From Clostridia bacterium (GTDB lineage Bacteria > Bacillota > Clostridia > Oscillospirales > QAMX01), in NCBI GenBank assembly GCA_017533425.1, contig JAFXIE010000123.1:1-39253 (forward strand): 39,253 bases of DNA, written 5' to 3'. Positions 2,423 to 11,352 of the stretch are shown piece after piece. The notes beneath the pieces were generated by a model, which was not told where the DNA came from, searched no databases, and saw only the letters and a list, made by a program, of their open reading frames with translations. Every line of letters starts with the position of its first letter. The first letter of the stretch is position 1. Position numbers and translations under genes: made by a program.

Positions 2423-3004
2423 TTGAAGCACTACAACGTCAAAAGTACACTGATCGAACGCGTGATCACCGTCATCGCGGCCGAAGGTCTGGACAAGACC
2501 ACCACCAAATCCATCGTGGAGGGCACCGGCCTGAATGAGGCGTATATCTATCGTACTTTCGAAGACAAAGAAGATCTGATCGCCGCCACCTTTGAGTTCC
2601 TCGACAACGAGCTTTATACCGCGGTTTCCGCCGGTATCGATATCATGTACGACGAATCTCTCAGTTTTGAAGTCCGTTGCCGCGCCTATTACGATACCGT
2701 CTGGCAGTTCCTTCTTGGAAGCAAGGATCGCACCCTCGCCTACACCCGGTATTTCTATTCTCCCTATTTCCAGAAGCACTCTGCCGGCAAGCACACCGAG
2801 CTCTTCATTCCCCTGGTGCAGCGCTTTGCCCCGGCCTTCAAGAGTGATGCCCACGTCTGGATGCTCATGCATCACTGCCTGAATGTCCTCTTTGATTTCG
2901 CCATCCGCGTATTCGACGGCGACTGCCCCAACGATGCGGACACGGCCGAGCACGTTTTCCGCCTGATCTATTTCTCCCTGAAGCCCTATTTCGCCGAGAA
3001 GTAA
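2423..3004 (+). CDS. TetR/AcrR family transcriptional regulator
   Basis: 193 residues from a TTG start at 2423, preceded by a GAGG-type site about 9 nt upstream; no better in-frame start is available. Residues of about 8-55 form a TetR helix-turn-helix (alpha-1 'LIERVITVIAAEG', then 'TTTKSIVEGTGLNEAYIYRTFEDKEDLIAATF'). The C-terminal ligand-binding half is not recognisable beyond the fold. The gene stands alone: the upstream operon ends in a terminator and the next gene downstream is on the other strand beyond a repeat element. Its target is therefore unclear; self-regulation is plausible. Confidence 0.85.
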   Translation: MKHYNVKSTLIERVITVIAAEGLDKTTTKSIVEGTGLNEAYIYRTFEDKEDLIAATFEFLDNELYTAVSAGIDIMYDESLSFEVRCRAYYDTVWQFLLGSKDRTLAYTRYFYSPYFQKHSAGKHTELFIPLVQRFAPAFKSDAHVWMLMHHCLNVLFDFAIRVFDGDCPNDADTAEHVFRLIYFSLKPYFAEK

Positions 3005-3019
3005 GCCGGTTTATAACAT

Positions 3020-3411
3020 AAAAACATCGGATATCCGAAAGACTACTTCTCATAAGGATGATTAAAGCCTCGATGAATTTCATCGAGGCTTTTCTTATGC
3101 TTATCGGAAAGAACCGGCATCGCATTTGTAAGTACAAATGCTTCTTTTTGGGTGATACCCAAACCCTTTTAACAACAAACAAGAAAAATAAGTGATATTC
3201 TTTGCTGTGCAAAGAGTGATATTTTCACTTTGTGAAAGTGATATTACTCCCTCCGGTCGTAGTGATATTTTATTCGCCCTAAAAACTGTCCGTAGGACAA
3301 TATCACGATGCGAAAGCATCATATAACTGCGAAGCAATATCACTCGCCTTTGGCGAATAAAACTGCGAGACTTCCTTATGAGAAGTCTCGCAAGGGATAT
3401 CCGATGTTTTT
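3020..3411. repeat. Palindromic GTGATATT-repeat element (MITE-like or structured RNA)
   Basis: An AT-rich 392-bp block between convergent genes, bounded by a perfect 17-bp inverted repeat: AAAAACATCGGATATCC (3020-3036) and GGATATCCGATGTTTTT (3395-3411). Just inside is a second inverted pair, CTTCTCATAAGGA (3046-3058) and TCCTTATGAGAAG (3373-3385). The middle holds four direct GTGATATT units (3192, 3216, 3238, 3262), then inverted AATATCAC units (3299, 3336) with a degenerate one at 3321. Between units sit mini-hairpins: CTTTGC/GCAAAG (3200-3214), TTTCAC/GTGAAA (3223-3237), GATGC/GCATC (3307-3320) and TCGCC/GGCGA (3344-3356). Forward units can pair with inverted units, so the whole block can fold into a branched rod. 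No convincing reading frame is present. It may be a non-autonomous mobile element; no clear target-site duplication was found. Confidence 0.75.
3064..3094 (+). terminator. Intrinsic terminator after TetR gene
   Basis: AGCCTCGATGAA (3066-3077) pairs with TTCATCGAGGCT (3079-3090), followed by TTTTC. The hairpin lies inside the outer inverted repeat of the 3020-3411 element, so the element may have brought the terminator or inserted around it. Confidence 0.7.
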
Positions 3412-3421
3412 TCATGTTTCT

Positions 3422-4057
3422 TTACAGCTCGCGGGGACGGATGCCGTCCTCCAGCCGCACCGGCAGCACCGCGCCGGCGGTATGCTCCCGCACAGCCTCC
3501 GACAGGGCGTCAAATTCCCCCGTCTCCACATTGCCGCACAGGCAGATCTCCGCCCCGTAGTCGAGGCTCTCCTCCCGCACACCGTAGGTGGGCAGGATGC
3601 GGGAAATGCGCTGCCAGGCGGCATAGCTCACCGTCAGGGAAAAGCGCACGCAGGGCACCATCCGCACCCGGCAGGCCGCCGCCACGGCATCCCGCGCCGA
3701 GCGGGCATAGGCGCGCACAAGGCCGCCCGCTCCCAGAAGGATGCCGCCGAAATAGCGCACAACCACGCTGACCACGTCGGTGATCCCTTCCCGCACCAGC
3801 ACCTCCAGCGCCGGCTTGCCCGCCGTTCCGGAGGGCTCCCCGTCGTCGGCGAAGCGTAGGGTGTTGTTTTCCCGCAGCACATAGGCATGCACATAATGGG
3901 TCGCGCCGGGATATTTCTCCCGCTGCGCCGCGATAAATGCCAGAGCCTCCGCCTCGGTCTTCACAGGGGCAAGCAGACCGATAAAGCGGGACTTTTTCTC
4001 AATAAATTCCGCGCAAACCTCGCCGTCTACCGTTTCATAGGGAACAAATTCAGCCAT
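3422..4057 (-). CDS. yigZ: YigZ/IMPACT family protein
   Basis: 211 residues from the ATG at 4057, chosen because GGAGGAG lies directly upstream; an upstream in-frame ATG at 4111 would extend far into hflX. The N-terminal domain is the IMPACT/UPF0029 fold with the diagnostic DDGEPSGTAGKP segment (about residues 60-71), preceded by 'EKKSRFIG' and followed by 'VVRYFGGILLGAGGLVRAY'. The C-terminal part (about 135-211) matches the second YigZ domain. Eukaryotic IMPACT regulates Gcn2, but the bacterial function is unresolved. The start overlaps the end of hflX by 8 nt, suggesting translational coupling. The 3' end abuts the repeat element at 3020-3411. Confidence 0.9.
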   Translation of the reverse strand: MAEFVPYETVDGEVCAEFIEKKSRFIGLLAPVKTEAEALAFIAAQREKYPGATHYVHAYVLRENNTLRFADDGEPSGTAGKPALEVLVREGITDVVSVVVRYFGGILLGAGGLVRAYARSARDAVAAACRVRMVPCVRFSLTVSYAAWQRISRILPTYGVREESLDYGAEICLCGNVETGEFDALSEAVREHTAGAVLPVRLEDGIRPREL

Positions 4058-5318
4058 TTTGCGCTCCTCCGCGGGCATCGTATTTGCGTACGGCGGCGTA
4101 GAGCTTTGCATCGCACACCGCCCGCACGGTCATGCCCGTTTCGCCGTGCTCCACGCTCTCCACCCGGCCGTCCCGGTAAAGCAGGTTGAGCGCCGCGCCG
4201 TCGGAATAGGGAATGTGCAGCTCCACCGCCCGGCGGGAGCCCTTTAAGAGCTCCGCGATCCGCGCCAAAAGCTCCGGAATTCCCTCGCCCGTGGCCGCGG
4301 AGATATAAATGCCCTCCGGATCCCGGGGCAGATCGGCGGGGGCGAGATCCGCCTTGTTGTAAACCCGCAGAATGGGGGTGTCCTCCCGCGCCATATCGGC
4401 GGCAAGAGCCTCGGTGACGGCGATCTGCGCCGTCATTTCGCTATCCGAGCAGTCGATGACATGCAGCAGCAGCTCCGCATATTTCAGCTCCGAGAGGGTG
4501 GCCTCAAAGGAGGAGATCAGCGTATGGGGCAGGCGGCGGATGAAGCCGACGGTGTCGGTCATCAGCGCCGGCAGCCCCGGCTCTGCCTCAAAGGCACGGG
4601 TGGTCATGTCCAGCGTATCAAAAAGCCGGTTGTTTGCCGGGATGCCCGCATCGGTCACCCGGTTCATCAGGGTGGATTTTCCCGCGTTGGTATAGCCCAC
4701 CAGCGCCACCACCGGCACGCTGTTTTTCAGCCGCGCCCGGCGCTGCTGCTCCCGCACGGCGGAAAGGTGCTCCAGCTCCTCCTCCAGGCGGCGCATCCGG
4801 CTGCGGATGTGCCGGCGGTCGGTCTCCAGCTTGGTTTCGCCGGGGCCGCGGGTGCCGATGCCGCCGCCCAGGCGGGACATGGCCGTTCCCTGGCCGGCCA
4901 GCCGGGGCAGCAGATATTTGTACTGTGCCAGCTCCACCTGCAGCTTGCCCTCCGCCGTGCGCGCACGGCCGGCAAAGATATCCAGAATAATGCCGCTGCG
5001 GGTGAGCACCGCGCAGTCGCACAGCTCCGACAGGGCTCTGGTCTGGGCGGGAGAAATATCGTTATCCAGCACCAGCAGCTCTGCCTCATGGGCAGAAATG
5101 AGCTCCTTTAGCTCCTGTGCCTTTCCCTCCCCGAGGAAGGTTCGCACATCGGGGGTGCTGCGGTTCTGCAGCACCCGGGCAGCTACCGTGCCGCCCGCGG
5201 TTTCCACCAGAGCCGCCAGCTCGGAAAGGGAGGCCTCATCCGAGCTTTGTGCCTCTCCCAGGGCGGGCGAGGCAAGCCCCGCGATGACCGCGATCTGTTT
5301 TTTTGCATCTTCCGTCAT
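4050..5318 (-). CDS. hflX: GTPase HflX
   Basis: 422 residues, normal for HflX, a ribosome-associated GTPase that splits stalled or hibernating 70S ribosomes, notably under heat stress. The N-terminal HflX domain (about 1-195) contains the family signatures 'LDNDISPAQTRAL' and 'GGGIGTRGPGETKLE'. The G domain shows G1 GYTNAGKS (about 204-211), G3 DTVGFI and G4 NKADL. The ATG at 5318 has GGTAGGAA 3 nt upstream. An intrinsic terminator separates it from rpmE upstream, so transcription comes from read-through or from a promoter I could not identify. It overlaps yigZ by 8 nt. Confidence 0.96.
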   Translation of the reverse strand: MTEDAKKQIAVIAGLASPALGEAQSSDEASLSELAALVETAGGTVAARVLQNRSTPDVRTFLGEGKAQELKELISAHEAELLVLDNDISPAQTRALSELCDCAVLTRSGIILDIFAGRARTAEGKLQVELAQYKYLLPRLAGQGTAMSRLGGGIGTRGPGETKLETDRRHIRSRMRRLEEELEHLSAVREQQRRARLKNSVPVVALVGYTNAGKSTLMNRVTDAGIPANNRLFDTLDMTTRAFEAEPGLPALMTDTVGFIRRLPHTLISSFEATLSELKYAELLLHVIDCSDSEMTAQIAVTEALAADMAREDTPILRVYNKADLAPADLPRDPEGIYISAATGEGIPELLARIAELLKGSRRAVELHIPYSDGAALNLLYRDGRVESVEHGETGMTVRAVCDAKLYAAVRKYDARGGAQNG

Positions 5319-11142: not shown

Positions 11143-11352
11143 CACAGCTCCCTGCATGATGCGTGATGCCGTTTGTTTTTAACCCACAAAAAACAAAACG
11201 GGAATCCGGGCTCCTTTTGCGGTTTGCAGGCCTCCCGCTGCTCCTTTGCGGCGGACGTTGGAAGCAATAAAGCACGAGGGAGGATTTTACCCACCCTACT
11301 ACACAGGTAGGTTATAACCCGCGGCACACGGTCAATGCGGGGAGTGTTTCAT
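11143..11352 (+). ncRNA. ssrS: Probable 6S RNA
   Basis: A roughly 210-nt structured segment between DUF1292 and tcdA with no reading frame. Its ends pair: CTCCC and GCAT (11148-11157) with ATGC and GGGAG (11335-11344). Inside, CGTG(a)TGCC (11162-11170) pairs with GGCACACG (11323-11330). The 3' side carries GGTTATAACCCGCGGCA, close to the conserved 3' arm of 6S RNA (E. coli has GGGTTACAGCCTGCGGCGGCA at the same place). The 5' side has GCCGTTTGTTTTTAACCCACAA, similar to the E. coli central-bubble strand. CCTCCC (11230-11235) can pair with GGGAGG further in. A T-run follows at 11352-11358. 6S RNA binds sigma-A RNA polymerase by mimicking an open promoter. The 5' and 3' ends given are approximate. 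Confidence 0.72.

What the first reader, a model, noticed from the sequence alone, without database searches (positions are those of the whole stretch)
3020..3411. Palindromic GTGATATT element: possible undescribed mobile element or structured RNA
A 392-bp AT-rich block with a perfect 17-bp outer inverted repeat, a second inner inverted pair, four direct GTGATATT and two to three inverted AATATCAC copies, each separated by its own mini-hairpin. The units are spaced 22-24 bp and the whole block can fold as a branched rod. The order (direct units first, inverted units after) is too regular for chance and is not a CRISPR or known terminator array. It contrasts with the GC-rich genome around it. 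I infer a non-autonomous (MITE-like) element or a folded RNA/DNA structure; no transposase is encoded.
Basis: partly seen in the sequence, partly recalled or inferred. Interest (0 to 1): 0.75.

Follow-up and report, generated by a model that had tools for sequence, protein, structure and literature searches.

The report
Hairpin-array element inside terminator loops
The odd palindromic block is one copy of a mobile DNA element, widespread in gut Clostridia, that settles in the loop of the hairpins that end transcription; it contains a known "Gut-1 RNA" and often travels with a poorly understood small gene otherwise known from ribosomal RNA insertions.

Summary
That repeat is the stem of an ordinary bidirectional transcription terminator between two convergent genes (TetR-like and UPF0029). 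A ~358-bp element has replaced the terminator's loop.

The element consists of an end hairpin, a palindromic array of GTGATATT-hairpin units, and a right-end module. The array holds a gathering-level Rfam Gut-1 match (RF01706) and a second, sub-threshold one. Relatives fill gut Clostridia/Oscillospiraceae genomes (79/197 in the order, 1/248 elsewhere in the phylum).

Two independent sets show terminator arms embracing non-tRNA copies (13/36 vs 1.1% of mismatched pairs; 12/36 vs 0/422). Three orthologous junctions in sister species have plain terminators, one with the same 14-bp stem and a 9-nt loop. A second site class lies just after tRNA terminators.

Longer copies carry a PF05635 23S-rRNA-intervening-sequence protein (IVP, Avd-like) gene. 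Arrays lie within 1.5 kb of 16/56 IVP genes and of 0/60 control genes. Every array-bearing relative has IVP (15/15 vs 7/24). RT and Y1 transposase are often absent.

Best reading: an IVS-like, loop-replacing element, probably IVP-dependent. The catalytic step is unknown.

The parts
3020..3036 (.). one arm of the host's bidirectional intrinsic terminator (AAAAACATCGGATATCC)
   Evidence: 17-bp perfect inverted repeat with 3395-3411; A-run outside, as in other copies; outermost helix of the predicted fold
3395..3411 (.). other arm of the same terminator (GGATATCCGATGTTTTT), ending in a T-run
3037..3394 (-). the inserted element, about 358 bp, non-autonomous; left end on the - strand at 3394
   Evidence: boundaries by comparison with copies in other terminators
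3363..3393 (-). left-end (LE) hairpin TTGCGAGACTTCTCATAAGGAAGTCTCGCAG
   Evidence: the same hairpin in G030 (L009) and G011 (L024), and with one base changed in G011 (L010) and G031 (L012), each in a different flank
3295..3365 (-). left half of the array; Rfam Gut-1 RNA (RF01706)
   Evidence: 51.7 bits, gathering 50
3190..3273 (+). right half of the array, inverted; sub-threshold Gut-1 match; GTGATATT at 3192, 3216, 3238, 3262
   Evidence: 45.3 bits, E 7.9e-8
3270..3278 (+). one strand of the central stem (TTATTCGCC), pairing with GGCGAATAA at 3352-3360
   Evidence: consensus pairs 38-46/132-143 of alignment A1; one pair changes U-A/C-G/A-U across copies
3037..3191 (-). right-end module with hairpins 3064-3092, 3122-3141 and about 3151-3164; 3045-3058 repeats part of the LE hairpin inverted
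   Evidence: similar modules end the other copies. Matching of left and right ends is not general
2423..3004 (+). convergent flanking gene, TetR-like regulator
   Evidence: PF00440, E 5.6e-8
3422..4111 (-). convergent flanking gene, UPF0029/DUF1949 (YigZ-like)
   Evidence: PF01205, E 1.5e-35

Best explanation
The block is a non-autonomous copy of a mobile element family of gut Clostridia that settles in the loop of intrinsic terminators. Shown: many copies; different flanks, each flank being the two arms of a terminator; plain terminators at the same junctions in sister species; compensatory pairing in the array. Shown by association: longer copies carry a PF05635 IVP gene just after the array, and all array-bearing relatives have IVP genes. 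Inferred: the terminator hairpin, extruded in single-stranded DNA or transcribed as RNA, is recognised by IVP (an Avd relative), and a copy of the element replaces its loop, much as IVSs have replaced tetraloops of 23S rRNA helices. Because the element folds on itself, the two arms and the T-run stay close, so termination should survive and the insertion is nearly harmless (inferred). The catalytic step is unknown.
For: Terminator arms: 13/36 copies score at least 11 against 1.1% of 355 mismatched pairs. In an independent set from named genomes, 12/36 score at least 12 against 0/422. A run of five A in the 30 nt upstream: 29/47 vs 9% and 29/51 vs 5%. Three near-identical copies in G035 lie in three different terminators. 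Unoccupied sites: L013/G002, same stem AAAAGGACTTCCCG with a 9-nt loop; L018/G001, stem AAGAGATCCC, GGGATCTCTT arm retained; L003/G001+G002, diverged but homologous terminator. Structure: 78% of 166 distinct array stems pair with their own arm, 9% after swapping arms. IVP: 16/56 IVP loci have an array within 1.5 kb vs 0/30 Y1 and 0/30 DUF559 loci, p 2e-6. Array-linked IVPs cluster on the tree, 10 changes vs 15 shuffled, 1/500. Genome level: IVP in 15/15 array genomes vs 7/24 others, p 7e-6; Y1, RT and DUF559 not associated. L016 is a 1234-nt copy between terminator arms with LE, array, IVP, a further ORF and right end.
Against: About half of the non-tRNA copies lack a clear second arm at strict thresholds, and tRNA-associated copies lie behind the terminator, not in its loop. 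The only IVP found in this genome (contig edge, G000:C21) belongs to a clade without arrays. Some copies carry other ORFs at the IVP position (DUF559-like in L329, a hypothetical in L298). No excision or transposition was observed, and strain-level polymorphism could not be tested. At the window's own junction the relatives have an extra gene, so that site is not a clean empty site.
Confidence: 0.72

Rival explanations
1. REP/RAYT-like element: a Y1 HUH transposase recognises GTGATATT plus hairpin and moves the units.
For: The anatomy resembles REP/BIME: a short conserved word 5' of each hairpin, direct and inverted orders, intergenic location.
Against: 0/30 Y1 loci lie near arrays. Y1 is not associated with array genomes, and G037 (estimated 100% complete), G038, G031, G007 and G004 have arrays but no Y1 hit.
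Confidence: 0.06
2. Retroelement: an Avd-like IVP works with a reverse transcriptase, as in diversity-generating retroelements, and the folded Gut-1 RNA is copied into hairpin targets.
For: PF05635 is homologous to Avd (PMC10053308). Stem wobbles lean towards the Gut-1 strand, 15 G-T vs 5 A-C, p 0.04.
Against: Only 9/40 genomes have PF00078, and array-rich G000, G011, G035, G037 and G038 have none. No general target duplication.
Confidence: 0.12
3. A functional structured sRNA or 3'-end stabiliser (Gut-1 as annotated) that the cell placed at terminators by selection, mobility being incidental.
For: Rfam lists Gut-1 as an sRNA gene; PMC2864571 rates it certainly an RNA. Strong compensatory pairing. 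Many copies follow tRNA genes.
Against: Many copies per genome in unrelated sites, absence in sister species at the same terminator, ORF-bearing longer copies and contig-breaking repeats are mobile-element traits.
Confidence: 0.1

Closest known systems
Intervening sequences (IVS) of bacterial 23S rRNA with S23/IVP protein (PF05635)
   Same: Small selfish element that has replaced the short loop of a pre-existing hairpin; complementary flanks; sporadic occurrence; may encode IVP (PMC4990558)
   Different: Here the hosts are intrinsic terminators at many loci, not rRNA helices; a multi-hairpin Gut-1 array and an LE hairpin are present; most copies lack the ORF
Rfam Gut-1 RNA (RF01706)
   Same: The array is a member by covariance model
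   Different: Rfam models one ~77-nt half as a free sRNA; here it is half of a palindromic array inside a ~320-400-nt (up to ~1.2-kb) element
MITEs
   Same: Short, non-autonomous, multi-copy, structured, intergenic
   Different: No general terminal inverted repeats, no target duplication, no parent DDE transposase seen next to copies (not searched for systematically)
REP/BIME elements with RAYT (Y1)
   Same: Conserved word followed by hairpin, direct and inverted order
   Different: Y1 genes neither adjacent nor correlated; insertion into terminator loops
Group IIC introns
   Same: Prefer intrinsic terminators as targets (own knowledge)
   Different: They insert next to the stem and carry ribozyme and RT; no RT ORF is in the element, and many array-bearing genomes lack RT

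Membership tests
Gut-1 RNA (RF01706) | covariance-model score at or above gathering (50 bits) | tested here: met
   51.7 bits at 3295-3365 -
IVS (23S rRNA intervening sequence) | located in a hairpin loop of 23S (or 16S) rRNA | tested here: not met
   lies between convergent TetR-like and UPF0029 genes
IVS (23S rRNA intervening sequence) | replaces the loop of a pre-existing hairpin, arms kept | tested here: met
   terminator arms and unoccupied sites for the family; for the window copy, arms only
IVS (23S rRNA intervening sequence) | IVP (PF05635) ORF in at least some copies | tested here: met
   L016, L024, L049, L088, L089, L099, L101 and others; not in the window copy
IVS (23S rRNA intervening sequence) | excised from the transcript by RNase III | not testable with these tools
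   needs RNA
MITE | terminal inverted repeats shared by copies | tested here: not met
   left and right ends match no better than swapped ends overall, 6.0 vs 5.5 nt; 14-bp match in the window copy only partly shared
MITE | target-site duplication | tested here: not met
   only 2 of 44 copies show a long direct repeat
REP/RAYT | Y1 transposase linked to the repeats | tested here: not met
   0/30 loci; no genome association
CRISPR array | identical repeats with non-palindromic unique spacers | tested here: not met
   spacers are hairpins, 78% self-paired; unit order inverts

The most novel reading that the evidence does not exclude
PF05635 IVP proteins, functionally uncharacterised so far, are the core of a mobility system without reverse transcriptase or known transposase that recognises nucleic-acid hairpins and swaps their loops for the element. 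Gut-1 RNA is its folded substrate, intrinsic terminators are its main target, and rRNA IVSs are another branch of the same system.
Probability: 0.38. Interest if true: 0.88.

Novelty: new variant of a known kind. Interest (0 to 1): 0.72.

Why it matters
It turns an orphan "sRNA" (Gut-1) into part of a mobile element, shows an unusually benign target choice (the loop of a terminator, which stays closed), and gives the widespread but functionless PF05635 protein family a genomic context from which its activity can be tested. No paper describing this was found in the open-access library searched; most subscription papers are not in it.

Tried and rejected
CRISPR-like array: rejected, since spacers are hairpins and units invert. 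Y1/RAYT: no adjacency and no genome association. RT/DGR: RT missing in array-rich genomes. DUF559 nuclease as mover: found once at the IVP position (L329, recognised by eye) but 0/30 DUF559 loci lie near arrays and there is no genome association. Matched left/right ends: looked convincing by eye (a notebook checkpoint, says so) but failed the swap test. Target duplication of the left arm: seen in L308 and L317 only. IVP genes without arrays as terminator-loop elements: a few suggestive cases, inconclusive. Viral contigs: no exact hit. Right arm of the L013 site in G001: not in the assembly. Strand of the structure: weak lean to the Gut-1 strand only.

Full report
WHAT IS THERE. It is AT-rich (GC 0.39 against 0.52-0.69 around it) and folds far better than shuffles on either strand. 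Rfam adds a name: the inverted half on the - strand is Gut-1 RNA, RF01706, above gathering score; the other half is a weaker match on the + strand. Gut-1 itself is an array of GTGAAAT words and hairpins. It was published as a noncoding RNA found only in environmental sequences (PMC2864571).

IT IS A REPEATED ELEMENT. This genome has several further partial or complete relatives: matches in six other contigs to the window's DNA and 11 Gut-1 matches in all. The window's DNA finds copies in 16 of 40 related genomes, the window's own included. Gut-1 matches occur in 79 of 197 genomes of the order but only 1 of 248 other genomes of the phylum, the latter at a stricter cut-off. An exact 24-nt array pattern finds at least 115 stretches in public genomes; those listed are nearly all MAGs labelled Clostridia, Clostridiales or Oscillospiraceae, mostly from animal guts. 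It finds none in viral contigs.

WHERE IT SITS. Oriented copies fall into two site classes. In one (34 copies) the array starts directly behind a tRNA gene and its terminator (CCA-GAAAA...TTTTC-AAC). In the other, which includes the window, an element-specific LE hairpin comes first, and upstream of it lie 8-17 nt preceded by a run of A. Downstream of the element the same stretch returns as reverse complement, followed by a run of T: the two arms of an intrinsic terminator. The match of own arms against mismatched arms is 13/36 vs 1.1%. In a second, independently fetched set it is 12/36 vs 0/422, with element lengths mostly 305-396 nt.

UNOCCUPIED SITES. Left flanks were searched in sister species. 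At the L013 site, G001 has AAAAAAAGGACTTCCCG followed by the element; G002 has AAAAGGACTTCCCG, a 9-nt loop, CGGGAAGTCCTTTTT. At the L018 site, G002 is occupied and keeps a GGGATCTCTTTTT arm; G001 has AAGAGATCCC-GAGC-GGGATCTCTT. At the L003 site, G000 is occupied by a ~370-nt element and both sister species have a plain, diverged terminator at the same gene junction. In G035 three near-identical copies sit in three different terminators. At the window's own junction the sister species also have a plain terminator but an extra gene (NUDIX-like, read by eye), so this site is only consistent. The right flank of the L013 site is not assembled. There is no general target duplication (2 of 44): the loop is replaced or entered without one.

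STRUCTURE IS SELECTED. Without using pairing as a criterion, distinct inter-unit spacers were collected; of the 166 that are 12 nt or longer, 78% pair five of five positions with their own other arm, 9% when arms are swapped, with 97 different left 6-mers. RNAalifold on 25 cores shows double changes in 8 of 24 pairs. Internal wobbles favour G-T over A-C on the Gut-1 strand, 15 to 5 (p 0.04), a weak hint of strand.

A PROTEIN GOES WITH IT. Some longer copies have a PF05635 gene (23S_rRNA_IVP) immediately after the array. L016 is a complete 1234-nt version between terminator arms: LE hairpin, array, IVP, a second ORF without Pfam match, right end. Over 40 genomes 16 of 56 IVP loci have an array within 1.5 kb; none of 30 Y1-transposase loci and none of 30 DUF559 loci does (p 2e-6). 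On an IVP tree the array-linked genes cluster, mainly in three clades. IVP is present in 15 of 15 array-bearing relatives and 7 of 24 others (12/12 vs 4/15 among those at least 90% complete), while Y1, RT and DUF559 show no association. These counts are not corrected for phylogeny. The IVP of the window's own genome lies on a contig edge and belongs to a clade without arrays, so its role here is unproven. L298 and L329 carry other ORFs.

HOW IT MOST LIKELY WORKS. IVSs of rRNA have replaced small loops of 23S helices and may encode IVP (PMC4990558). PF05635 is called functionally uncharacterised (PMC11270868) and is homologous to the DGR protein Avd (PMC10053308). The simplest joint reading is that IVP binds a hairpin and helps a copy of the element replace its loop. 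With terminators as hosts the insertion is nearly neutral, because the element closes on itself and leaves arms and T-run in place. Loop location, unoccupied sites and IVP association are shown; IVP causality, the nucleic acid involved and the catalytic step are inferred. An RT is unlikely as a resident partner.

CLAIM WITHDRAWN ON TESTING. The end-matching of left and right hairpins that struck the eye (noted) did not survive swapping. The window's 14-bp inner repeat is therefore a feature of this and a few related copies, not of the family.

Noticed in passing
L040:880-1020, L054:1800-1950: Arrays of the same design but with TGATGT/ACATCA words instead of TGATAT or TGAAAT, suggesting further families of hairpin arrays.
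   Followed up: no
L329, L298: Elements with the same LE hairpin carry a DUF559-like endonuclease ORF (L329) or a 166-aa hypothetical ORF (L298) where others carry IVP; L298 is 930 nt between terminator arms.
   Followed up: partly
L072-L076, L138: IVP genes are bracketed by short tandem words (TGCAGAATGCAGAG, TTGACAATTG, ATTATGCATTATG), perhaps another kind of IVP element.
   Followed up: partly
L308, L317: Two copies show the left terminator arm and loop duplicated directly before the right arm, as a long target duplication would; not seen in 42 others.
   Followed up: partly
L004, L006, L011, L013: Several contigs of this genome and its relatives end inside these arrays, so the arrays probably break assemblies and are under-counted.
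   Followed up: no
window 11146-11347: 6S RNA (RF00013), + strand, above gathering score.
   Followed up: no
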